Origin: a virus
Reading direction: 5' to 3' (one strand)
Virus record (IMG/VR): IMGVR_UViG_3300037264_002333
Span: 1 to 42,294 of that record
Length of the DNA: 42,294 nt
Part shown: one piece after another, positions 4,427 through 42,068 of the stretch
Layout of the letters: the number at the start of each line of letters is the position of its first letter
Position numbering within the stretch: the first letter of the stretch is position 1
Translations under genes and position numbers: made by a program
Notes under the pieces: generated by a model
What the model saw: only the letters and a program-made list of their open reading frames with translations
Databases searched by the model: none
What the model was told of the DNA's origin: nothing

Positions 4427-4441
4427 CCCTAGATTCTAGGG
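4427..4441. promoter_or_regulatory. Perfect inverted repeat over the MuF gene ribosome site
   Basis: CCCTAGA and TCTAGGG form perfect 7-nt arms around a single central T, placed directly ahead of ATG 4443. The right arm contains the only purine-rich (AGGGG) sequence that could serve as a ribosome site, so pairing of the arms in RNA or binding of a dimeric protein to DNA could limit expression of the toxin-like head gene. Function is inferred from position only. Confidence 0.4.
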
Positions 4442-4442
4442 G

Positions 4443-7064
4443 ATGCCAACTCCCTCGCTGGCTCCCTACCGTCTGGCCCAGGGGCGCGTCCGCCAACTCA
4501 TGGGGCGTTTGCACGCCACCACGGCCCAAACGATGGCCACAGCCATGCGCGACTTCTCGCAGCGTATTGCGGGGGAGCTTTCCTCAATTGCCAACGCCGA
4601 CATCCTCCGCGCCCGCACAGCGACACAAAACATCATTGCGAAAGCCGCCACCGACCTAGATCGGGCGGTCTCGGCGGCACTGGCCGAGCAGCGGGCGGTC
4701 ACATTTCAGGAAGTCTCCGAGATTATGAAGGGAGCGCAGCTAGAGGCCGCTGCCAGTGTGGGGGTGCGTGGCGCTGTCCTGGGCGCTATCCGTACCCCGC
4801 CCATTGCGATGATGGGCGCCTTCGAGGGGTTGGGTGCCGCCCAAACGTGGCGCACGCTGCTGCAAGCCAATGTGCGACGGACGGCGCTCGAAGCCAATAC
4901 CATTGTGTCGCGGGCCATCCTCGAAGGCATGGGGCCAGTCGAATTGTCGCGCCGGTTGCGGCTCTATGTCACGGGGTCTGAATCGTTCCAGGAGGCATTC
5001 GCCGGGCAGGACAAGGTGGATTTGCGGCGCGTGCCTGCGGCGGTGCGTGGCGCAGCGGGGCAGATGCGTTTCAACGCTGAGCGTATCGCGTTCTCTGAGT
5101 ATCAGAATGCGCGGCACGAAGCGGAGGTCCAAGCCTGGATAGCGGACCCCCTTGTGGGAGCAGTGCAATGGACCCTGAGCCCGAACCGGGGCACGCAGAC
5201 TACGCCGGATGAATGCGACGTGCTGGCCTCGACGGACTTCTACGGCCTGGGCGCTGGGGTCTATCCTGTCGATAAGGTGCCACCTCCGCCTCATCCCTTT
5301 GACCGTTGCGAGCTACTCCCTGTCGTGCGCCCCGTGGGCGACATGGGGAAAAACAAGCCGAGCCCCGCTCGCGCCATTACCGGACACCTGGCCACAATCC
5401 CACGCCGGGAGTTGCTGTCCCCTACGGCAGCCACGCGCATTCAGGATTCCGTGGAGAGCCTCGTGGGGTGGGGCGACGCACAACTTTCTGGGAGCAAGTC
5501 GTTGCGGGCCGCCATTCGCAAGGAGACCTTCTCACCGCCCATTGGGTCCATTGATGAAGTCTCGGGCAAACTCGTGGGGCAGTCGGTCAATGATGTCGAT
5601 GAACTCATTCGACGGGGGCATGCCGTCCAGCCCACATTCGAAGCGGACATCAGGGGCATCGCGAATGAACTCGGCATCCCCCAGGAGAAGGGGCAGCTTT
5701 CTCGTGTCAAGACGCGAGAGAGTGCTTACCGCAAAATCGGAGATCAAGGGCGGCCCGCGAACTCCCTCAACGACTTTTTGGGTGGGCGGTTGCGGGTTGA
5801 CACAGAGGCCGAGGGGGATGCGATTCTGCACAGTTTGGAAGCGCGGGGATATCGCATTCTCGAAGACGATAACTTCATCAAAGAAGTTTCCACGCGGGCG
5901 GGATACCGGGCACGCCACCTGAGCCTCGTGACGCCTGACGGGCGCCTGGGGATTGAGCTACAAGTCATTCCCCGCGAAGTGGCACGGGTGCAGGAGTTGG
6001 CGCACCATTTCTACGATGTCATCCGCAACCCCAAGTCGTCCAAGGCGGCTCGGGACCAAGCGACACGCCTCGCCCAGAGATTGTTTGATGGCGCCTGGGG
6101 GCGATACAAGGTCCGCGTCGGATGGGTGGAGGGGCGACTCGCGCTTTCTGCATCTGATGAGGCGCTGGTCGCTCGCGCCACGAAGCAATGGAACCATTCC
6201 GTGAAGCAATACTGGTCGGTCGCGCGGTCTGACGCACAGAAGCTAGGGATTCCCCTTGACGCCTTGGACGCGCAAGCTGGGAGCGAGAGTCGCAAGAAAC
6301 TTCTCCGTCATTGGATAGACGAAGGGAAGGGGCGACTGGAGCCGGGCTTGGAATGGGATGCCGCAAAGAAGCGATATCTGCGTCAGTCGCCGGAAATGGA
6401 AGCTCTCGACAACGCGGTAAATGGAAGCTGGACCGATCCTGGCCTACTGAAGCCCGATGAGTCCTTCCCGGCGAACTACATCGCCCGCGACTTCTGGGAA
6501 CGCTGGACGAAGAACAGCACCTACGAAGGGGCGCTCGCCCTTAAGGTCGCGGCGAGTGAAGCCTTCGGGACGGACCTGGCTGTCTCGCTCAACAAACACA
6601 AGATCGAGAAATACATCAAGTCGGCCCAGGAAATCCTGGCGCGGTACAAGCTCACAGTGGCGGATGTGGCGACATGGCTGCGCGCTGAGCGCGCTACGAA
6701 TGTCGCTCTCTTGCGCACACTCGGGTACAAAACAATCAAGCTCTATCGCGGCGTCACGTACGAAGTGATGACGGCTGGTGGGAAGGCTCTGCCAGAGGTT
6801 GGCGAGACTAGCACGCTCGCCATGAAAGGTCTCTCTAGCTGGACGACAAACTTTGAAGAAGCCAAGGCGTTTGGTTCCGTGGTCTATGAGGTGGAGGCGC
6901 CTATCGAGAATGTGGTGGCGTCCTACTTGACGCGGTACGAGTTTTACGAACAGGAATTCGTGTTGGCCGGGAAGCCGTTGCGCGGCAAGGTCGTCAGTGT
7001 CTCGAAGCGTGCCAAGGACGCGGAGCTTGCGAAGCAAGCGGCGAAAACAGGGAGTACCCCATGA
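4443..7064 (+). CDS. MuF-type head protein fused to RelA/SpoT-like and ADP-ribosyltransferase domains, 873 aa
   Basis: Three parts are visible. (1) A MuF (Mu gpF / SPP1 gp7-like) head domain, about residues 130-290, with the helix AERIAFSEYQNARHEAE, then W-x-LSPN, DECDVL and the closing HPFDRCELLP. (2) A RelA/SpoT-like nucleotidyltransferase domain, about 400-560: RVKTRESAYRK (R421, K423, K431), NDFLGGRLRV with D444, GYRARH (487-492) and IELQV with E505/Q507, i.e. the Asp and Glu used by (p)ppGpp synthetases are present. (3) A C-terminal ADP-ribosyltransferase of the R-S-E class, about 740-860: LYRG with R769, LSSWTTN (798-803) and YEQEF with E836 and E838. MuF proteins carrying C-terminal toxins are known from temperate phages; the protein may be packaged and delivered with DNA. 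Two enzyme domains in one chain is unusual. The start is preceded by a poorly spaced ribosome site. Confidence 0.88.
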   Translation: MPTPSLAPYRLAQGRVRQLMGRLHATTAQTMATAMRDFSQRIAGELSSIANADILRARTATQNIIAKAATDLDRAVSAALAEQRAVTFQEVSEIMKGAQLEAAASVGVRGAVLGAIRTPPIAMMGAFEGLGAAQTWRTLLQANVRRTALEANTIVSRAILEGMGPVELSRRLRLYVTGSESFQEAFAGQDKVDLRRVPAAVRGAAGQMRFNAERIAFSEYQNARHEAEVQAWIADPLVGAVQWTLSPNRGTQTTPDECDVLASTDFYGLGAGVYPVDKVPPPPHPFDRCELLPVVRPVGDMGKNKPSPARAITGHLATIPRRELLSPTAATRIQDSVESLVGWGDAQLSGSKSLRAAIRKETFSPPIGSIDEVSGKLVGQSVNDVDELIRRGHAVQPTFEADIRGIANELGIPQEKGQLSRVKTRESAYRKIGDQGRPANSLNDFLGGRLRVDTEAEGDAILHSLEARGYRILEDDNFIKEVSTRAGYRARHLSLVTPDGRLGIELQVIPREVARVQELAHHFYDVIRNPKSSKAARDQATRLAQRLFDGAWGRYKVRVGWVEGRLALSASDEALVARATKQWNHSVKQYWSVARSDAQKLGIPLDALDAQAGSESRKKLLRHWIDEGKGRLEPGLEWDAAKKRYLRQSPEMEALDNAVNGSWTDPGLLKPDESFPANYIARDFWERWTKNSTYEGALALKVAASEAFGTDLAVSLNKHKIEKYIKSAQEILARYKLTVADVATWLRAERATNVALLRTLGYKTIKLYRGVTYEVMTAGGKALPEVGETSTLAMKGLSSWTTNFEEAKAFGSVVYEVEAPIENVVASYLTRYEFYEQEFVLAGKPLRGKVVSVSKRAKDAELAKQAAKTGSTP

Positions 7065-7192
7065 ACGAGCACGAAACCAAGGAGTACCTGGAACTACTCC
7101 AGGACATCCAAAAGTCGCATCCAGAAGTCACGGTACTGCTAGATTTCACCGAAGAAGATGCCAATTGGTTACACAAGAAGCCGAATGGTTAG
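7061..7192 (+). CDS. Acidic 43-aa ORF downstream of the MuF toxin-like gene
   Basis: ATG 7061 overlaps the MuF stop by four bases (ATGA), so it is probably co-translated with it. The product is acidic and helical (MNEHETKEYLELLQ... then LLDFTEEDANW), without cysteines or membrane segment. Its position, size and charge are those of a possible immunity or antitoxin peptide, but there is no family match and this is an inference. Confidence 0.5.
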   Translation: MNEHETKEYLELLQDIQKSHPEVTVLLDFTEEDANWLHKKPNG

Positions 7193-7200
7193 ATTCAGTG

Positions 7201-7404
7201 ATGTACGGGGATGGGGGGGTGGGGAAGATGTGGAAGGAAACGCTCTCGAACATCGTGCATGACAGCCCCTGTGCCGTCTGTGGTGAGGGGCGCATTCTCC
7301 TGTGTTTTGTCCGTGTCCAGGGGACGGCAGTGACGACGCGGCTCCAAACGCTGTGCGGGTGCCAGCACGTCTTACATGAGCACGTCGCCATTCGGAAGGT
7401 CTAA
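7201..7404 (+). CDS. Small cysteine-rich protein, 67 aa
   Basis: ATG 7201 (or GTG 7198) opens a frame with CAVCGEG near residue 24 and CGCQH near residue 52, a likely four-ligand zinc site. It ends just before a strong hairpin at 7405, so it closes this gene cluster. No family recognised. It may be a second accessory to the MuF gene or an unrelated small protein. Confidence 0.5.
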   Translation: MYGDGGVGKMWKETLSNIVHDSPCAVCGEGRILLCFVRVQGTAVTTRLQTLCGCQHVLHEHVAIRKV

Positions 7405-7521: not shown

Positions 7522-7545
7522 CCGGCCCGCGACGGGTACGCGGAG
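7522..7545 (+). repeat. 24-bp direct repeat, copy 1, with internal hairpin
   Basis: Identical to 7589-7612, 67 bp downstream. Within it CCGCG (7527-7531) pairs with CGCGG (7539-7543) around loop ACGGGTA. The bases after each copy are also loosely similar (purine/CCAGG-rich with a ribosome-site-like GGAGG), so the whole leader segment may be an old duplication. Confidence 0.75.
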
Positions 7546-7588: not shown

Positions 7589-7612
7589 CCGGCCCGCGAC
7601 GGGTACGCGGAG
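7589..7612 (+). repeat. 24-bp direct repeat, copy 2, with internal hairpin
   Basis: Second exact copy of the element at 7522-7545. Its hairpin lies at 7594-7610, about 38 bases ahead of the scaffold start, close enough to influence ribosome loading or to be a protein-binding RNA site. Confidence 0.75.
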
Positions 7613-7647: not shown

Positions 7648-8475
7648 ATGCCAGACAAGGCGCGGACCGTTGAGGTGGAGATTGACGGCAAGAAGGTAGC
7701 CGTGCAGTTGCCAGACACGGTGCTGACGCGGGAAGAAATCGACGAGCAATTCGTCCCGCTGACGAAGCACAATATCGCGATGAAGAAGCTCCGCGATGCA
7801 GCCGAAGGGAAAGTGGACCGAGCCACACTCGTCGAGGATGAAGGGTTCCTGGCGGAGTTGGCCGAGAAGAAGGGGGACTGGTTCGCGGAACGCCTCAAGC
7901 TCAAGAAGGGGGGCGTCGATCAGTCCGAGTTGGAGAAGCTCCAGCAACAGTGGGGCGAGCGGGAAGCGCGGCTCAAATCGCAATGGGTGGACCGCGAATT
8001 GAAGCCCGTGACGGACAAGCTGGAGATTGCGACCAAGACCGTTGGGTCCTTGCGGTCCCAGCAGTTGGACAACACGGTGATGCAAGCGGCCGTGGACAAT
8101 GAAGTGGTGGAGGACAACTACGAACCGATCAAGGCATGGTTCCGGTCCTTCACGAAGTACGACGAAGAATTCAACGGCTGGTTTATCGTGGGGGGCGACG
8201 GCGAATTCGAAGCCACCACGGTGATGAAGAAGGGCAAGGCACCGTACAAGACGCCGGGAGAACATCTGGCGGAGCTTCGACAGGCTGGCAAGTATGCCTC
8301 GTGGTTCAAGGCGGGGACACGGCCTGGAGCGGGATACAAGGGGCCTGGCAGTAAGACGCCCGACGTATCTGTGGACGAGCAAATCGCCGCCGCCGAGAAG
8401 GCGGGCAAGTTTAACGAGGCGATTAAGCTCAAGATGGACAAGGCACGACAGATCACAAGCGCGGCAACGCGCTAA
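7648..8475 (+). CDS. Capsid scaffolding protein, 275 aa
   Basis: ATG 7648 has an AGGAGG site eight bases upstream. The product is highly charged, Lys/Glu-rich and largely helical: residues about 60-150 look like a coiled coil (LEKLQQQWGEREARLKSQW), and the C-terminus is basic (KLKMDKARQITSAATR), the usual pattern for scaffold proteins that bind the capsid shell. Its place directly before the major capsid gene supports the call. It carries no visible protease domain. The N-terminus (VEVEIDGKKVAVQLPD) forms a small beta element. Confidence 0.8.
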   Translation: MPDKARTVEVEIDGKKVAVQLPDTVLTREEIDEQFVPLTKHNIAMKKLRDAAEGKVDRATLVEDEGFLAELAEKKGDWFAERLKLKKGGVDQSELEKLQQQWGEREARLKSQWVDRELKPVTDKLEIATKTVGSLRSQQLDNTVMQAAVDNEVVEDNYEPIKAWFRSFTKYDEEFNGWFIVGGDGEFEATTVMKKGKAPYKTPGEHLAELRQAGKYASWFKAGTRPGAGYKGPGSKTPDVSVDEQIAAAEKAGKFNEAIKLKMDKARQITSAATR

Positions 8476-8526: not shown

Positions 8527-9495
8527 ATGCCTACAGTCTCTGGCATGGCGACCAGTTATGACCTCCCGCAGTATATCGGGGAGTTGTTCCAGAAGTCCGA
8601 GAAGCCGAATGCCGTGCTGCGCCTCGTCGGTGGCTTGACCGGAGAACTCCGGTTGGTCGGGAACGCCAAGTTCCCGATGGGCGTGAACTACATTCTGCCG
8701 ACAGCGGCCCAGCCCGCCATTCTCGAAGGCGCGGCGCCGTCGCCGGTCGAGCAGGACACCGCCCAGGCGGACAACATCGTCCAAATCTTCCAGAAGTCCG
8801 TGAAGCTCGCGTACTCGAAGATGGGCGAGAAGCAGTCCGTCGATGGTATCGCGCTGATTCCTGGCGCGGGTGTGGGGACGCCGCTTCAGACAGGTTCGTT
8901 GGAGTGGCAGTTGTCGAAGTCGATGGAGTCCATCCAGCGGGATGCGAATTACAGCTTCCTGCGGGGCGCCTATGTCTCCCCGGCCAACAACTCCACGGCG
9001 CGGCAGACACGCGGGGTGCGGACGGCGGTAACGACCAACGTGACGGCGGTGACGCCGCCACTGAGCAAGGTCACGTTCGAAGGGCACCTGCGGACGATGC
9101 TGAACAATAGCGCGTTCGTGCAGGGCGACGAGGTGTTCGTCCTGGGCTCCGCCGCGACGCTCGACATCCTTATCAGTCTCTACGAGCCCTCGGCTACTGT
9201 CGGGTTCCGCCCGCAGGACACGCGGGAAATTGTGGGTGTGTCGCTGCGGACCATCCACGCCCGTTGGGCGACGTGCCACCTGGTCTGGGAGCCGGATGTG
9301 GCGGCCAACGAGTTGTTTATCTTCCAGCCCAAATTCTGCCGGGTCACGGCCATGCCGATTCCGCAGAAGGGCGTCCTCTTTGCCGAACCGCTGGGGAAGG
9401 TTGGGGCGGCAGATGAGTGGCAGTTGTACGGCGAGCTTGGCATCGACTACCGGGACGAAATCTTCCACGGGGTCCTGACAGGCATCACGTCGTAA
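8527..9495 (+). CDS. Major capsid protein, SU10/DUF5309 type, 322 aa
   Basis: Forms the icosahedral head shell with the HK97 fold. Family landmarks are MATSYDLPQYIGELF near the start, AAQPAILEGA at about residue 60, RDANYSFLRGAYVSPANN and STARQTRG at about 138-162, and the C-terminal VLFAEPLGKVGAADEWQLYG block followed by HGVLTGI. These match the SU10-like/DUF5309 major capsid family, and length is normal. ATG 8527 follows a GAGGGATGAC ribosome site. A strong terminator follows the gene at 9509, suggesting high, partly separate expression of scaffold and capsid relative to the downstream tail genes. Confidence 0.9.
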   Translation: MPTVSGMATSYDLPQYIGELFQKSEKPNAVLRLVGGLTGELRLVGNAKFPMGVNYILPTAAQPAILEGAAPSPVEQDTAQADNIVQIFQKSVKLAYSKMGEKQSVDGIALIPGAGVGTPLQTGSLEWQLSKSMESIQRDANYSFLRGAYVSPANNSTARQTRGVRTAVTTNVTAVTPPLSKVTFEGHLRTMLNNSAFVQGDEVFVLGSAATLDILISLYEPSATVGFRPQDTREIVGVSLRTIHARWATCHLVWEPDVAANELFIFQPKFCRVTAMPIPQKGVLFAEPLGKVGAADEWQLYGELGIDYRDEIFHGVLTGITS

Positions 9496-28742: not shown

Positions 28743-29840
28743 ATGCCACGGATAGCGCGGCAGTCAGGGGTCGGCGGGTCAGAACGGGCCTTCGGTGTGG
28801 AGTTTGAATTCACGGGCCGGATGACCCTCGCCGCGTACGGCGACATTGTGAAAACGGCGCTGCGCCCGTTCGGCGTGCCCGATTCACAGGTTGTCGTGGC
28901 GGGATACCGGCACTCTGACGGGACCACCTGGGACATGAAGACGGATGCGTCCTGCGGGTTCGAGTTGGCCACGCCCCGCATCACCTGGGCGGACTGGCCC
29001 AAGGTGGAAGCGGTCACGGCGGCGCTCTTGGCGGCGGGTGCCCGTTCGACGGTCCAGTGCGGGGTCCATGTCCATCACGAGGTCCGCGACTACACGCCCG
29101 CGAATCTCCGCGACCTGATAAAAGTGTGGGCGCTGCATGATGACGCGATTCACGCCATGCTGACGCAAAGTCGGCAGGACAATCACTTCGCGAAGACCTT
29201 CACCCGGCTCGAAAACTTGCGCAAGGGGCGCAATGGCGAAGTCGTGACGGACCTGGTGAAAGCGACCGTGCGCTCGGCCTGGGTGCGCTTCGCCACGTTC
29301 CTGCGGACGGACCAGTCGATGCAACAGTACATCGAATCGAAGGGCCGGTACACGAGCCTGAACACGACACTGTTCTGGCGGTCTGGCCGCGTCGAAGTGC
29401 GGGCGCACCACGGCTCCCTGAAAGCTGCCGACGTGGCTCCCTGGATTGAATTCACGCAGCGGCTGGTTGATCGGGTTCAGCAGGGGCGAATGTACTGGAC
29501 ACAAGAGCGGGAAGTCGAGCGGCTCGTGGCCGTTCCCCGCCGCCGCCTGGAGTCCCTGATGGTCCTGGTCACGGGCCACCCCACACGGCGCACCGACAGC
29601 GACAAGCAGTTGGTCACGCAATTGCGGAGATTCGTACGGAAGCGCCAGCCCAGCTTCTTGGGGCAGCGGGGTGGGGACTGGCGGGCACGGCGGGCGGCTG
29701 GTGGGGCGCGGGTGGCCACGCCAGTACAGCAGATGACGGAAGCGGCGGCCAACATCTGGCGTGGGGCGCGGGTGGCCACGCCAGTACAGCAGATGACGGA
29801 AGCGGCGGCCAACATCGGGCGCGTGGTCCTGAGCCTGTAA
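28743..29840 (+). CDS. Amidoligase-family (GCS-like COOH-NH2 ligase) enzyme, 365 aa
   Basis: Motifs fit the Amidoligase_2 family, relatives of gamma-glutamylcysteine synthetase that join a carboxylate to an amine using ATP: FGVEFEF (17-23) with the metal-binding glutamates E20 and E22, MKTDASCGFELATP (65-78), CGVHVHHE (106-113), and VEVRAHHGS in the C-terminal half. The substrate is unknown. Literature on this family describes pairs with class II glutamine amidotransferases, which is exactly the next gene here. The last 45 residues hold a 20-residue segment duplicated in tandem, most of it outside the catalytic core. Both genes probably act together on a peptide, cell-wall or protein target. 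Confidence 0.75.
   Translation: MPRIARQSGVGGSERAFGVEFEFTGRMTLAAYGDIVKTALRPFGVPDSQVVVAGYRHSDGTTWDMKTDASCGFELATPRITWADWPKVEAVTAALLAAGARSTVQCGVHVHHEVRDYTPANLRDLIKVWALHDDAIHAMLTQSRQDNHFAKTFTRLENLRKGRNGEVVTDLVKATVRSAWVRFATFLRTDQSMQQYIESKGRYTSLNTTLFWRSGRVEVRAHHGSLKAADVAPWIEFTQRLVDRVQQGRMYWTQEREVERLVAVPRRRLESLMVLVTGHPTRRTDSDKQLVTQLRRFVRKRQPSFLGQRGGDWRARRAAGGARVATPVQQMTEAAANIWRGARVATPVQQMTEAAANIGRVVLSL
29701..29820 (+). repeat. 60-bp tandem duplication in the amidoligase gene
   Basis: 29701-29760 and 29761-29820 are identical at 59 of 60 bases (only position 57 of the unit differs, T versus G). The unit is a multiple of three, so it adds one 20-residue copy (GARVATPVQQMTEAAANI core) without breaking the frame. 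Near identity indicates a very recent duplication. Confidence 0.95.
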
Positions 29841-29861
29841 CCTAGGAGGAAGTGAGACACC

Positions 29862-31145
29862 ATGTGCGGCATCTTCGGAGTAGTCAAGCCAGCGCCCTTG
29901 CGCATGACCAAGAAAGGCCATGAGCGGTTGGAAGTCTTGCTCGATGCGCTGGCGGCATTGAGCGCCGCTCGGGGAACGGATTCCACCGGGATTGCGCGTA
30001 TCACCATGGGGCAGGCGCCGGTCATCACCAAGGCGGCGGTTCCATCCTGGACATTTATCCAGACAGCGGCTTGGCGCCACGCCGTCGCCACCCCTGACGC
30101 CCACGTGGTCGCGTGGCTGGGACATACGCGGTGGGCGACGCATGGCGATGTGACGGCGGCGAACGCGCATCCGTTCCGCTTCAAGACGCCGGATGGCTAC
30201 GTGGTCGGGACGCACAACGGGGTCATTCACAATCACGCGAATCTGCGAGGGCCTGACGATAAGGTCTATGAGGTAGACAGCGCCAATCTGATCGCGGCGC
30301 TTGCACAACTCCCCGTTGCGGAGTGGCCCGACTTGCTGAATCGCGTGACGGGGAGTATGGCGCTGGCCTTGAGTGTCGTGACGGACCGGCACCAATCCGT
30401 GGTGCTGACGCGGAATAGCGGCAATCCCTTGTGGATGGCGCGAGCGCCCAAGATGGGGAACCTCCTGGTGTACGCCAGCACGTACGACATTCTGACCCGT
30501 GCGGCGGATACGGCTGGCATCACCATACAGGGGATGAAAGAGCTTTCCGCAGGCACGCTCCTGACCATCCGCCCGACGCGCAACACCCTGCGCCTCAAGG
30601 TGCAGCGGTGGGCGCCAGAGAAACAGGACATGTGGGATGTGTGGCGCGCCGGGCGGCCCGCGAGCACGAACGTGAGTGTCAAGCTGTCTCCCACTGGACC
30701 ACGGACGACGTACACCCTGGGTCCGGCTGAGAGCAACAGGGTGCAGCCGAAGTTGGACCTCCTACACAAGGCCGCGCCGTACGGCACGAATACGAATCTC
30801 CATCGCAATTGCGGCGGGTGCGGGAAGTGGTTCGTGGAGACCAAGATGGTCAAGGTGCTCGGGGCGGGGACCAATGCGCGACGGTGCGAAGCGTGCGCTA
30901 TGGCTTGGGTGGGGATGGGCGGCAAAGTCGAAGCGGCTCCGCCCCGCCAACCGGCGAGCGAAGTGGACATGGGGGCCGAGCCTGAGGAGGGGCCACACCA
31001 AATGTGCAGCGGGTGCGGCGTTTGGTTCCCCGAAGTCGAGTTGCTGGGGTCTGTGGATACGGGCCAAGCGGGGTGGCGGTGCCTGGACTGCCTGGACCTC
31101 GTAGGGCTTGACACAAGGGTTGACAACAATACGGGCACGGACTAG
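29862..31145 (+). CDS. Class II glutamine amidotransferase with two C-terminal zinc ribbons, 427 aa
   Basis: The N-terminal MCGIFGVV gives the catalytic Cys2 after Met removal; GHTRWATHGD (R90), NAHPF, THNGVIHNH (N119, G120) and the acid DSANLIAAL (D139) are the Ntn-hydrolase glutaminase signatures of the GlmS/PurF class. It would release ammonia from glutamine or act as an amide hydrolase. No sugar isomerase or PRTase domain follows; instead, after about residue 300, there are two zinc ribbons, CGGCGKWF...CEAC and CSGCGVWF...CLDC. This combination with the preceding amidoligase suggests a two-gene peptide/amide-forming system. A GGAGG site precedes ATG 29862. Confidence 0.82.
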   Translation: MCGIFGVVKPAPLRMTKKGHERLEVLLDALAALSAARGTDSTGIARITMGQAPVITKAAVPSWTFIQTAAWRHAVATPDAHVVAWLGHTRWATHGDVTAANAHPFRFKTPDGYVVGTHNGVIHNHANLRGPDDKVYEVDSANLIAALAQLPVAEWPDLLNRVTGSMALALSVVTDRHQSVVLTRNSGNPLWMARAPKMGNLLVYASTYDILTRAADTAGITIQGMKELSAGTLLTIRPTRNTLRLKVQRWAPEKQDMWDVWRAGRPASTNVSVKLSPTGPRTTYTLGPAESNRVQPKLDLLHKAAPYGTNTNLHRNCGGCGKWFVETKMVKVLGAGTNARRCEACAMAWVGMGGKVEAAPPRQPASEVDMGAEPEEGPHQMCSGCGVWFPEVELLGSVDTGQAGWRCLDCLDLVGLDTRVDNNTGTD

Positions 31146-35786: not shown

Positions 35787-35877
35787 ACGAGTGGAGCGGA
35801 GTGGTGGGCCGACGCACATCGGGACCGTGGTGCTTGGGTGGCAACCGTACGACTTGAGTAGGCCGGAGGTGGGGTGA
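35767..35877 (+). CDS. Possible small bridging ORF, 36 aa
   Basis: ATG 35767 lies in the 3' end of the SSB-like gene, and its TGA (35875-35877) overlaps the GTG start at 35874. The product begins MTNCPFERVERSGGP. It spans the otherwise empty 87-base gap and would couple translation to the initiator gene. There is no clear ribosome site and no family match, so it may not be a real gene. Confidence 0.3.
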   Translation: MTNCPFERVERSGGPTHIGTVVLGWQPYDLSRPEVG

Positions 35878-36770
35878 GAGCGAGGATACGGACCATCAAG
35901 CCCGAGTTTTTTCAACATGAGGGACTGTATGATGCCGAAGTTGCAACTCAGTTGCCGCTACGGTTGGCATTCGCTGGCCTGTGGATAGTCGCAGATCGGG
36001 AAGGTCGCTTCGAATGGCGACCACGCGCACTGAAAGCGAACATCCTCCCATATGATGGGATGGACTTCGAAGTGGTCCTGGATGCACTAAGTGCGCATGG
36101 ATTCGTGACCAAGTACAATAGTGACGGTCGGGAATTAGGCTATATCCCAAGCTTCTCCCGACATCAGGTTGTTCACCATTCGGAGCGTGCTAGTGAGCTA
36201 CCAGAGCCTCCGGGTGTTCCCGGTAGACCTACGGTAGGTTCCCCGGTAACTCGCCGTGTCAGCACCGTAAAACCACGTCGTGGAAAGGAAGGGAAAGGAA
36301 AGGAAAGGAAAGGAAAGGAAAGGAAGGAGCAATCTCTTGTGCGCGTTCCGCGCACCTATGCGGTGGTCCGGTCAGAGATTGATTCCAGTTTCCAGCAGCT
36401 AACCGACCAAGCTGTCGAGCGGGAGACTCAGATCGAAGCAGCAGCCGAAATCCTGTTCGCCTACTGGGCGGCCAAAACGGGTCGCCAGAACAATGCGCTG
36501 TACGACAGGCAACGGGCCTCCAGACTGCGGGCGCGGCTCGTCGAAAATGATGGAAACTTGTCGGAGTTGCTCTACGCCGTCGATGGGGCCTTACGGGATG
36601 ACCATTTGACGGGCCGCAGTACTAGTGGCGGGGGCAAGAAATATCTGGGGATTGAGACCCTTTTCCGTGATCGAGCCCAGGTGGAACGGTTGTCCGCGTT
36701 GATGTCGTACCGGATGGGGCAAGAGCATCCCTTACTCGTCCGTCACCGGAGTCAGGATGCACACTCCTAG
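35874..36770 (+). CDS. Phage replication-initiator/helicase-loader-like protein, 298 aa
   Basis: GTG 35874 follows GGAGGTGGGG. The N-terminus RARIRTIKPEFFQHE, then AFAGLWIVADREGRFEWRP and LKANILPYDGMD, is the well-known wHTH domain of phage replication proteins. A strongly basic low-complexity linker (about residues 136-151, GKGKERKGKERKE) is encoded by the GGAAA tract. The C-terminal domain (about 185-285; AAEILFAYWAAKTGRQNNALY... LGIETLFRD) resembles DnaD-like/loader modules. It would bind the origin and load the helicase. The codon and base composition of the first 300 bases is lower in GC than its neighbours, suggesting an origin or recent transfer. Confidence 0.75.
   Translation: MRARIRTIKPEFFQHEGLYDAEVATQLPLRLAFAGLWIVADREGRFEWRPRALKANILPYDGMDFEVVLDALSAHGFVTKYNSDGRELGYIPSFSRHQVVHHSERASELPEPPGVPGRPTVGSPVTRRVSTVKPRRGKEGKGKERKGKERKEQSLVRVPRTYAVVRSEIDSSFQQLTDQAVERETQIEAAAEILFAYWAAKTGRQNNALYDRQRASRLRARLVENDGNLSELLYAVDGALRDDHLTGRSTSGGGKKYLGIETLFRDRAQVERLSALMSYRMGQEHPLLVRHRSQDAHS
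36282..36326 (+). repeat. GGAAA pentanucleotide microsatellite in the initiator gene
   Basis: Nine consecutive 5-mers: GGAAA, GGAAG, six pure GGAAA (36292-36321) and GGAAG. Because 5 is not a multiple of 3, loss or gain of one unit shifts the frame and would truncate the C-terminal domain. Pure purine strand; it could also form triplex or unwound DNA at the origin. Confidence 0.95.
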
Positions 36771-40756: not shown

Positions 40757-41292
40757 CGCGCAAGCCATTACGGCGTCTTGTCGGCATCGACCCGAGCTTG
40801 ACGGCCACTGGGCTCGTCGTCGTGGAACTCACGCCCACGACGCAGACAGTGGTCTGGCGTCGGACTGTGCGGAGTCACACGGGGGAGGATTTGCTAGCGC
40901 GACTGTCTCAATTGGCCACCACGGTTTCACATGCCGTGGTGGGGGCCACCGAGGCATTCCCCTGTGCGGACGTGGTGATTGAAGACCCCACGGACCAGAA
41001 ACTCATCGGGCGGAATCGCAATGTGGGGAGTATCTGTAAGCTGGGCGCGGCAGTGGGTGCCATTATGGTCTCGGTCGCCCGCGACATCCATCTCCCGATG
41101 CACGCGGTTCCGGCTAGTCACTGGCTCCCCAAGACCCAGACGGGGAATTTCCGACATGCCGTGAAGCACGATGTGGCGAAACTGTTGCTCCGACACCAAA
41201 TTGTGGGCCTCGATGAGGCGACGGACGATGAAGTCTTCGCCGCAGGCGTCGCGGTCTGGTGGGCTCATCATTCCAAGGAGGAAGACCTGTGA
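40753..41292 (+). CDS. RuvC-like Holliday-junction resolvase, 179 aa
   Basis: Cleaves branched DNA during recombination, replication or before packaging. Catalytic pattern: GIDPSLTATGL with D13, VVIEDP with E77, a basic helix FRHAVKHDVAKLLL with the Lys, and the C-terminal DEATDDEVFAAGVAVWW with D158/D159, the usual D-E-D-D set of RuvC. Length is normal. It is coupled to its neighbours by ATGA/GTGA overlaps. A late or replication-associated role is likely. Confidence 0.82.
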   Translation: MTRKPLRRLVGIDPSLTATGLVVVELTPTTQTVVWRRTVRSHTGEDLLARLSQLATTVSHAVVGATEAFPCADVVIEDPTDQKLIGRNRNVGSICKLGAAVGAIMVSVARDIHLPMHAVPASHWLPKTQTGNFRHAVKHDVAKLLLRHQIVGLDEATDDEVFAAGVAVWWAHHSKEEDL

Positions 41293-42068
41293 CCACACCC
41301 AAGAAGAAGAAGAAGGCTCGCCAGGCGGAGCCCGTGACCCATGTCGCGCTCATTCTTGATCGCAGCGGGTCCATGATGGAGTGCCGGGACGCGACCATTG
41401 ACGGGTTCAACGCCCAGCGCGCCTCCATCCAGGCGAATGTCGCGCAAGGGGATGAAGTCCGTATCACGTTCTTGAGTTTCGGGGGCCGAGGGCCGAGTGG
41501 GGTGCATCTCCACAAGTACAATCGCCCTATCGCAGAACTCGATGCGCTCACTCCTGAGACCTACATCCCGACAGGCGGTACGCCGTTGTATGACGCTGTG
41601 GGGGAGGCGCTCGCGCAATTGCAGCGGCATGACGAGCAGGGTAAAGACATCGGGTTTCTCGTCATCATCTTGTCGGACGGTCAGGAAAATTCCTCCACGG
41701 AATGGGTCTCGCCGCCGCCCAAACACAAAGGGGAGAAGCTGGCGGCGCGCATCAAGAAGCTCCGCGACACGGGGCGCTGGAACTTCGTGTACATCGGGGC
41801 GAACCAAGACTTGGCGGATGTGCAGCGGCATCTGGGCGTGCAGCAAGCTGTGGCCTACACCCCCTCTCCGGCTGGGACGCAGCGACTGTATGAAGTGTCG
41901 AGCCGCAGTCTCGGCTCCTATCTCTCGGCGCGGAGTCACGGGCTCACTCCACAGGCCAGCGCGGTCGCGTACGACGTGGCGTTGGAGGCGTGTCCCGAGT
42001 GTCATCATTTGGGTGCTGGGCATGCCGCAGGGTGTGCTCGCGAGGCGCGGCAAGGCCAAGGCAGGTGA
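41289..42068 (+). CDS. von Willebrand A (VWA) domain protein, 259 aa
   Basis: GTG 41289 overlaps the previous stop. The MIDAS site is complete: DRSGSM (D24, S26, S28), PTGGTPLYDA (the Thr at about 97) and LSDGQENSS (Asp at about 135). The fold binds Mg2+ and partner proteins. N-terminal Lys-rich tail (KKKKKARQ) suggests nucleic-acid contact. Near the C-terminus CPECHHLGAGHAAGC may form a zinc site. The last residues (REARQGQGR) are encoded inside the second GGYNN array, so the 3' end has been altered by it. Role unknown; phage VWA proteins often pair with AAA+ ATPases, not visible here. Confidence 0.82.
   Translation: MTTPKKKKKARQAEPVTHVALILDRSGSMMECRDATIDGFNAQRASIQANVAQGDEVRITFLSFGGRGPSGVHLHKYNRPIAELDALTPETYIPTGGTPLYDAVGEALAQLQRHDEQGKDIGFLVIILSDGQENSSTEWVSPPPKHKGEKLAARIKKLRDTGRWNFVYIGANQDLADVQRHLGVQQAVAYTPSPAGTQRLYEVSSRSLGSYLSARSHGLTPQASAVAYDVALEACPECHHLGAGHAAGCAREARQGQGR

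What the first reader, a model, noticed from the sequence alone, without database searches (positions are those of the whole stretch)
4443..7064. Phage MuF head protein carrying both a RelA/SpoT-like domain and an ADP-ribosyltransferase domain
Seen: MuF signatures, then an intact RelA/SpoT-like set (R421, D444, GYRARH, E505-x-Q507), then R769/SSW/E836-x-E838 of an R-S-E ADP-ribosyltransferase. Known: MuF proteins with single C-terminal toxin domains form a polymorphic toxin family, and T4 injects ADP-ribosyltransferases with its DNA. Inference: this virion protein could deliver two effectors, one altering nucleotide pools (ppGpp, ppApp or tRNA pyrophosphorylation as in ToxSAS) and one modifying host proteins or nucleic acids. 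The central domain could also be inactive or regulatory. Two distinct enzyme domains in one MuF protein would be unusual and possibly a new architecture.
Basis: partly seen in the sequence, partly recalled or inferred. Interest (0 to 1): 0.88.

Follow-up and report, generated by a model that had tools for sequence, protein, structure and literature searches.

The report
Phage head protein with two enzymes
One protein from the head-gene block of an uncultured phage joins a capsid-anchoring domain to two different predicted enzymes, an alarmone-synthetase-like one and an ADP-ribosyltransferase-like one, so that a single virion protein could carry two attacks on the host cell; each pairing is known singly, and the searches made here found no example with both.

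Summary
Window 4443-7064 is one open frame of 873 codons just upstream of scaffold and major capsid genes. Residues 150-301 match phage head-morphogenesis (MuF) families. Residues 420-523 match Pfam RelA_SpoT above its cut-off; a low-confidence single-sequence AlphaFold model of residues 380-576 retrieves only RelA/SpoT-family chains at Foldseek PDB ranks 1-21. The C-terminus carries R769, S798-S799 and E836-x-E838 of an R-S-E ADP-ribosyltransferase; this part is weaker (DRAT below cut-off, a profile link to jumbo-phage ADP-ribosyltransferase-like proteins, fold inconclusive).

MuF plus alarmone synthetase (Apk2) and MuF plus ADP-ribosyltransferase (Bxa, EFV) are published; no paper seen here describes both in one MuF protein, and no homologue with the whole architecture was found. 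Best reading: a virion-delivered two-effector protein, a new variant of MuF polymorphic toxins/polyvalent proteins. Delivery, catalysis, substrates and immunity are inferred. The published Apk2 signature is absent, so (p)ppApp is not the default product. The best MuF relative found in cellular genomes (1 of 111 searched) is short and lacks both effectors.

The parts
4443..7064 (+). MuF / RelA-SpoT-like / ART-like protein, 873 aa
   Evidence: one open frame; domain matches; codon-position GC
4443..5372 (+). residues 1-310: MuF head-morphogenesis part, with the C-terminal ECD...GLGAGVYP...PPPPHPFDRC stretch
   Evidence: phrog_1657 E 1.4e-18 over residues 150-301; 36% over 118 aligned positions to an annotated phage head morphogenesis protein; 36% over 176 to a short MuF of a genome from the phylum of a Thermus
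5580..6122 (+). residues 380-560: RelA/SpoT-like synthetase domain (R421/K423/S427/K431, D444/R449, G487-Y488/H492, E505/Q507)
   Evidence: PF04607 31.2 bits, cut-off 27; Foldseek PDB ranks 1-21 are RelA/SpoT-family chains; shuffles
6540..7061 (+). residues 700-873: R-S-E ADP-ribosyltransferase-like domain (R769, S798/S799, E836-x-E838)
   Evidence: DRAT 23.9 bits, cut-off 25; hhalign E 1.2e-5 to a jumbo-phage ART-like family; shuffles; fold evidence weak
7061..7192 (+). 43-aa acidic ORF overlapping the MuF stop as ATGA; candidate immunity protein (by position only)
   Evidence: only weak family matches, E 0.03 or worse
7201..7404 (+). 67-aa ORF with CxxC and CxC, function unknown; second small ORF next to the toxin gene
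   Evidence: no family match
7648..8475 (+). head scaffolding protein (context)
   Evidence: phrog_206 E 2.4e-6
8527..9495 (+). SU10-type major capsid protein (context)
   Evidence: PF17236 129.1 bits

Best explanation
The gene encodes a minor head protein that sits in the capsid through its MuF part and carries two C-terminal enzymes. On infection the protein, or its C-terminal part, enters the cell with the DNA. The RelA/SpoT-like domain then transfers pyrophosphate from ATP to a 3'-OH of a nucleotide (or a tRNA end), disturbing nucleotide signalling, energy or translation. The ART-like domain transfers ADP-ribose from NAD+, most likely to arginines of host proteins. Shown: frame, context, domain homology and active-site residues (weaker for the ART). 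Inferred: packaging, injection, both activities, both substrates, and the benefit (host takeover, or inhibition of competitors). The two tiny ORFs directly downstream may be immunity proteins; this is only positional.
For: Position beside scaffold and major capsid genes. MuF match. RelA_SpoT above Pfam's cut-off; catalytic residues aligned with Rel/SAS domains; single-sequence AlphaFold model (mean pLDDT 53.6, pTM 0.52) hits only RelA/SpoT-family chains at ranks 1-21, best E 7.3e-5; VIA Z 9.3 to 6fgk_A and 8vx3_B with rmsd 5.0 and 5.3 over 154 and 161 residues. ART: R-S-E residues, DRAT 23.9 bits, hhalign 81% / E 1.2e-5 for the domain and 65% / E 6.3e-5 for the whole protein against four jumbo-phage proteins, one of which matches phrog_832 'RNA polymerase ADP-ribosylase' at E 1e-4, below its best match to a family of unknown function at 4.5e-6, and weakly DRAT and ADPrib_exo_Tox. 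Literature: MuF toxins are proposed to be injected from the head (PMC5576092); MuF-ART Bxa is antibacterial (PMC11699363); MuF-Apk2 makes (p)ppApp (PMC12226406).
Against: The ART fold is not established: no PDB row at E <= 0.001, ART-fold chains only at Z 3.5 or less in VIA, under helical rows at 4.4, four of five models at pLDDT 37-40, DRAT below its cut-off. The ExQxR arginine is replaced (I509), so the RelA-like domain might be altered or inactive. phmmer against PDB gave nothing for the whole protein and only E 0.64 for the central part, with green fluorescent proteins beside it. No hydrolase-type immunity gene among 29 window ORFs scanned with Pfam. MuF proteins are reported at one to three copies per virion (PMC5576092, PMC12226406), which limits dose. 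No portal or terminase was recognised among the ORFs scanned.
Confidence: 0.55

Rival explanations
1. Only one domain is a live effector. The RelA/SpoT-like domain is degenerate or regulatory (for instance a nucleotide sensor that gates the ART), and the ART does the work, as in T4 Alt or Bxa.
For: The arginine of ExQxR is I509; Syn3 reads GYRARH, where the second R occurs in none of the 11 Rel/SAS rows compared (the A at the serine position does, in 2 of 11). Single-ART MuF proteins are established (PMC11699363).
Against: D444, E505, Q507, R421, K423 and H492 are all kept, which drift would be expected to erode.
Confidence: 0.2
2. The alarmone-synthetase-like domain is the effector and the C-terminal part is not a working ART (a binding or ancillary domain with an ART-like motif).
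For: Fold evidence for the ART is weak; DRAT is below its cut-off; direct tblastn of this part found only E 0.7 in phages and an unrelated frame at E 0.2 in plasmids.
Against: The R, S-S and E-x-E residues occur in the expected order; the profile link to ART-like jumbo-phage proteins beats all 2000 shuffles; the two best Foldseek PDB rows are an entry of exoenzyme S and the RHS2 toxin domain, though only at E 0.07 and 0.27 (that both are ARTs is recalled).
Confidence: 0.15
3. The C-terminal domains serve a prophage-borne antibacterial toxin released on lysis against competitors, with the small downstream ORFs as immunity.
For: [quoted passage not shown]); a 43-aa ORF overlaps the stop.
Against: No integrase or repressor family appeared among the window ORFs scanned (not all ORFs); the small ORFs have no meaningful match.
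Confidence: 0.2
4. Assembly or annotation artefact that fuses separate genes.
For: No relative with the same three-part architecture was found; GC at codon positions 1 and 2 falls towards the C-terminus and 6001-7000 has 59.0% GC against 62.4% in the preceding kilobase, which would also fit acquisition of the ART part.
Against: One uninterrupted frame of 873 codons with position-3 GC of 0.68-0.76 throughout; head genes follow.
Confidence: 0.03

Closest known systems
Apk2 (MuF + adenosine 3'-pyrophosphokinase), prophages of S. pneumoniae, M. haemolytica, P. multocida (PMC12226406)
   Same: MuF part followed by a RelA/SpoT-family synthetase domain.
   Different: The Apk2 letters that the paper gives (GxN in Syn3, RYT in Syn2, YH in Syn4; SxH, AVR, IR in RSH) are absent: by my alignment Syn3 reads ARH, Syn2 GGR, Syn4 VI. 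An ART-like domain follows. No Aph1-type hydrolase was recognised in 29 scanned ORFs.
Bxa and the EFV toxin (MuF + ADP-ribosyltransferase; PMC11699363, PMC5576092)
   Same: MuF part with a C-terminal ADP-ribosyltransferase(-like) domain; small ORFs next to the gene, as for Bxa.
   Different: Here an alarmone-synthetase-like domain lies between; no ADP-ribosyl hydrolase was recognised in 29 scanned ORFs.
Polyvalent proteins (PMC5512222)
   Same: Several effector domains in one phage polypeptide; MuF, RelA/SpoT and ART all occur in that network.
   Different: [quoted passage not shown] here the motif is R-S-E.
T4 Alt (head-injected R-S-E ADP-ribosyltransferase; PMC5512222, PMC9503650)
   Same: Predicted head-borne R-S-E ART acting early.
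   Different: The passages seen do not describe Alt as carrying MuF or RelA/SpoT parts.
SaEAS, small alarmone synthetases, Rel, CapRel, FaRel2 (PDB)
   Same: Fold of the central domain.
   Different: No MuF part is named in those entries' titles.
Short MuF in L026, from a genome of the phylum of Thermus
   Same: Same PHROG family, 36% over 176 aa.
   Different: 356 aa (start chosen by me in an open frame of 515), ending about 40 residues after the matched MuF part, without effector domains.

Membership tests
MuF polymorphic toxins (PMC5576092) | N-terminal MuF domain | tested here: met
   phrog_1657 E 1.4e-18; 36% over 118 positions to an annotated head morphogenesis protein. No Pfam MuF model was reported.
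MuF polymorphic toxins (PMC5576092) | C-terminal extension with a known toxin domain | tested here: met
   RelA_SpoT above the cut-off; RelA-like domains are among the toxin domains of that paper
MuF polymorphic toxins (PMC5576092) | gene near portal or terminase (85% of phage muf genes in that paper) | tested here: inconclusive
   scaffold and major capsid genes follow; no portal or terminase recognised; the record may be a fragment
MuF polymorphic toxins (PMC5576092) | temperate phage | tested here: inconclusive
   no integrase among the ORFs scanned; not all ORFs were scanned
MuF polymorphic toxins (PMC5576092) | adjacent immunity gene | tested here: inconclusive
   43-aa ORF overlaps the stop, without a meaningful family match
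RelA/SpoT-family synthetase (PF04607) | sequence profile above the curated cut-off | tested here: met
   27.6, 31.2 and 32.4 bits against 27
RelA/SpoT-family synthetase (PF04607) | synthetase fold | tested here: met
   Foldseek ranks 1-21, best E 7.3e-5; VIA Z 9.3, rmsd about 5; the model is single-sequence and of low confidence
RelA/SpoT-family synthetase (PF04607) | Syn residues: RxK...S...K, D....R, GY...H, ExQ | tested here: met
RelA/SpoT-family synthetase (PF04607) | arginine of ExQxR (present in all 11 Rel/SAS sequences compared) | tested here: not met
   I509 (HMM alignment and pair alignment place E505 and Q507; the 12-row MAFFT print misplaces this segment)
Apk2 | GxN / RYT / YH letters of Syn3 / Syn2 / Syn4 as given in PMC12226406 | tested here: not met
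   ARH, GGR, VI by my alignment
Apk2 | iapK and aph1 downstream | tested here: inconclusive
   no hydrolase family in 29 scanned ORFs; an IapK-type protein could not be recognised without a reference
R-S-E ADP-ribosyltransferase | R, S-(S/T), E-x-E in order | tested here: met
   R769, S798-S799, E836-x-E838; R and S regions align to jumbo-phage ART-like proteins, the E region does not align well
R-S-E ADP-ribosyltransferase | curated sequence profile | tested here: inconclusive
   DRAT 21.4 and 23.9 bits against 25
R-S-E ADP-ribosyltransferase | ART fold | tested here: inconclusive
R-S-E ADP-ribosyltransferase | NAD+-dependent transfer of ADP-ribose | not testable with these tools
   needs a bench assay
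Polyvalent proteins (PMC5512222) | two or more distinct effector domains in one phage polypeptide | tested here: met
   sequence level only
Polyvalent proteins (PMC5512222) | ART, where present, of the H-Y-D (HYD2) clade | tested here: not met
   R-S-E type residues; rule from section 9 of that paper

The most novel reading that the evidence does not exclude
The first MuF head protein known to carry two different, both active, effector enzymes: one injected molecule that at once makes or consumes an alarmone-type (or tRNA-end) product and ADP-ribosylates host proteins, perhaps with one activity gating the other.
Probability: 0.4. Interest if true: 0.72.

Novelty: new variant of a known kind. 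Interest (0 to 1): 0.56.

Why it matters
The MuF toxins studied at the bench in the papers seen here (Apk2, Bxa, EFV) carry one effector each. A protein with two chemically unrelated enzymes would show that phage heads can deliver combined payloads, and would let one ask directly whether the two activities act together. It would also bring an R-S-E type ART into a multi-effector phage protein, where a published survey (PMC5512222) did not find that type.

Tried and rejected
Searches without a relative of the whole protein: viral contigs (whole or part as query), phages by tblastn, plasmids, genome contigs. The one confirmed locus, L008, is a short chance match in a frame that I take, from recall, for an alanyl-tRNA-editing-like protein; its genome has no match to the protein (0 of 1). 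The major capsid search gave two distant loci at 29%; none of their ORFs of 100 aa or more matches this protein, but L003 holds only 705 bases upstream of the match. The genome with the short MuF has no match to the major capsid protein (0 of 1).

Weak tblastn leads checked and dropped: H2/L009 is, by its look, a terminase, H49/L013 an unrelated 713-aa frame. H1/L005 (E 2) turned out to lie in a 762-aa Rel-like frame, which supports the RelA reading. For the Rel/SAS HMM I used 11 of the 13 loci fetched for it (L005), out of 61 records with a match; L020 and L021 were dropped before the count as weak hits (E 0.2 and 9) of unproven kinship. The same HMM gave 19.3 bits on the central part and -0.5 or less on the C-terminal part, the MuF part and the major capsid protein.

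phmmer against PDB found nothing for the whole protein; for the central part its best row was a GTP pyrophosphokinase at E 0.64, with green fluorescent proteins next; for the C-terminal part only an unrelated row. VIA for the C-terminal model ranks sigma-factor helices first (Z 4.4) and Tpt1 at 3.5 and below; no fold is excluded by that. PADLOC: nothing for the protein. NCBIfam: only a SciP match far below its cut-off. PF06627 (DUF1153) matches residues 727-759 below its cut-off and was not followed. Promoter scan uninformative: 1 found, 0.8 expected.

Papers: the searches (lists cut at 20 of 22, 13 of 14, 1 of 1, 1 of 1, 15 of 7,742 and 8 of 9) and the passages read gave no description of MuF with both domains. 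Figures and supplements of PMC5512222, PMC5576092 and PMC9503650, where such an architecture could be drawn or listed, were not readable here.
Full report
What is there. The window is a whole IMG/VR virus record of 42,294 bases. The frame 4443-7064 on the + strand codes for 873 aa. It is followed by a 43-aa acidic ORF whose ATG overlaps the stop, a 67-aa ORF, a scaffold protein (phrog_206) and an SU10-type major capsid protein (PF17236, 129.1 bits). Codon-position-3 GC is 0.68-0.76 in all nine blocks along the frame; positions 1 and 2 fall towards the C-terminus. The frame is thus unbroken, with a drift in base make-up that would fit later acquisition of the last part.

MuF part. Residues 150-301 match phrog_1657 (head morphogenesis) at E 1.4e-18, and three other head families more weakly. 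Residues 207-323 are 36% identical over 118 aligned positions to a protein annotated as phage head morphogenesis protein. A search of 111 genomes from the phylum of a Thermus genome (Deinococcota by recalled taxonomy) found one match, E 7.1e-22 over residues 26-309. It is a MuF of the same PHROG, 356 aa from the start I chose, 36% identical over 176 positions, ending about 40 residues after the matched part. The effector part of the window protein therefore looks like an added extension. This phylum was searched only because a chance locus gave an entry to it, so the match is no strong hint at the host.

RelA/SpoT-like part. PF04607 is above its cut-off of 27 in the whole protein (27.6 bits), the isolated domain (31.2) and the record (32.4). 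An HMM built from 11 Rel/SAS sequences found among the 'phages' records (by their look mostly bacterial) scored 16.4 bits on the protein against 2.2 for the best of 2000 shuffles. R421, K423, S427, K431, D444, R449, Y488, H492, E505 and Q507 are there. The arginine after ExQ, present in all 11 sequences, is I509. Folded from the single sequence (mean pLDDT 53.6, pTM 0.52), the domain retrieves RelA/SpoT-family chains at ranks 1 to 21 of the Foldseek PDB list, 6 of 349 rows being at E <= 0.001 and the best at 7.3e-5. VIA gives Z 9.3, rmsd 5.0 and 5.3 over 154 and 161 residues, for two small alarmone synthetases; 28 of 997 chains reach Z 8.

ART-like part. Pfam's DRAT model scores 21.4 (whole protein) and 23.9 bits (domain), below its cut-off of 25. 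tblastn found a protein of the Klebsiella jumbo phage Eowyn at E 0.7. That protein has relatives in three further phages. Its best PHROG is of unknown function (4.5e-6), the next phrog_832 'RNA polymerase ADP-ribosylase' at E 1e-4, and it matches DRAT and ADPrib_exo_Tox weakly. Profile comparison of these four with the window domain gives 81% probability, E 1.2e-5, over residues 766-822, which hold R769 and S798-S799; with the whole protein 65%, E 6.3e-5. The HMM of the four scores 14.7 bits against 3.7 for the best of 2000 shuffles. The E-x-E stretch lies outside that local alignment and MAFFT did not align it well. The single-sequence model has one usable version of five (60.8; the rest 37 to 40). 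Its Foldseek PDB list has no row at E <= 0.001; the two best rows are an exoenzyme S entry and the RHS2 toxin domain (E 0.07, 0.27; that these are ARTs is recalled). In BFVD 2 of 291 rows are at E <= 0.001, both unnamed; a minor capsid protein (E 0.01) and rows named as ART or PARP domains (E 0.09 to 0.2) stand lower. VIA gives Tpt1 (ART fold, recalled) Z 3.5, rmsd 3.9 over 71 residues, under sigma-factor rows at 4.4. I take the domain as a probable R-S-E ART.

How it may work. [quoted passage not shown]). Apk2 (MuF + synthetase) makes (p)ppApp and is toxic in E. coli (PMC12226406, first quarter and passages). Bxa (MuF + ART) is toxic to bacteria, modifies arginines and has two immunity proteins (PMC11699363, passages). 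The window protein would combine the two. It does not carry the Syn letters that the Apk2 paper gives for adenosine-type enzymes, so its acceptor (GTP/GDP, ATP, tRNA) is open. That E-x-E points to arginine as target is recalled knowledge, not a result of a call.

Immunity. Among 29 distinct window ORFs scanned with Pfam (7, 2 more, 10, 10, E limits 1, 10, 0.05 and 0.05), no hydrolase family of the Aph1 or ADP-ribosyl-hydrolase kind appeared. The 43-aa ORF is a candidate by position only.

Novelty. Six paper searches and passages of seven papers gave MuF + RelA/SpoT (PMC3482391, passages; PMC5512222, section 22), MuF + ART (PMC9503650, passages and section 27) and multi-effector polyvalent proteins (PMC5512222, passages and sections 9 and 22), and no MuF protein with both. 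PMC12691689 (passages) counts 39 MuF-type sequences among exported alarmone synthetases, and its main text does not contain 'ADP-ribosyl'. Figures and supplements were not readable, so an unlisted precedent is possible. I file it as a new variant of MuF toxins / polyvalent proteins.

Noticed in passing
7524-7545 and 7591-7612: Two perfect copies of a 22-base repeat (GGCCCGCGACGGGTACGCGGAG) between the 67-aa ORF and the scaffold gene; none in 100 shuffles.
   Followed up: partly
4427-4441: A short inverted repeat (CCCTAGATTCTAGGG) ends one base before the ATG of the MuF gene; possible control of its translation or transcription (seen).
   Followed up: no
28743-31145: Amidoligase (PF12224, 78.9 bits) followed by a glutamine amidotransferase-type protein.
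   Followed up: no
1-42294: No portal or terminase was recognised among the ORFs scanned, though head genes are present; the record may be a fragment.
   Followed up: partly
41259-42068: Protein with a sub-threshold von Willebrand factor A match near the end of the record, phrog_7371.
   Followed up: no
35874-36770: Replication initiation protein; 34% identical over 84% of its length to one of Vibrio phage VvAW1.
   Followed up: no
L007 1824-2342, L010, L011, L012: Small family of unannotated or 'hypothetical' jumbo-phage proteins that look like stand-alone R-S-E ADP-ribosyltransferases.
   Followed up: partly
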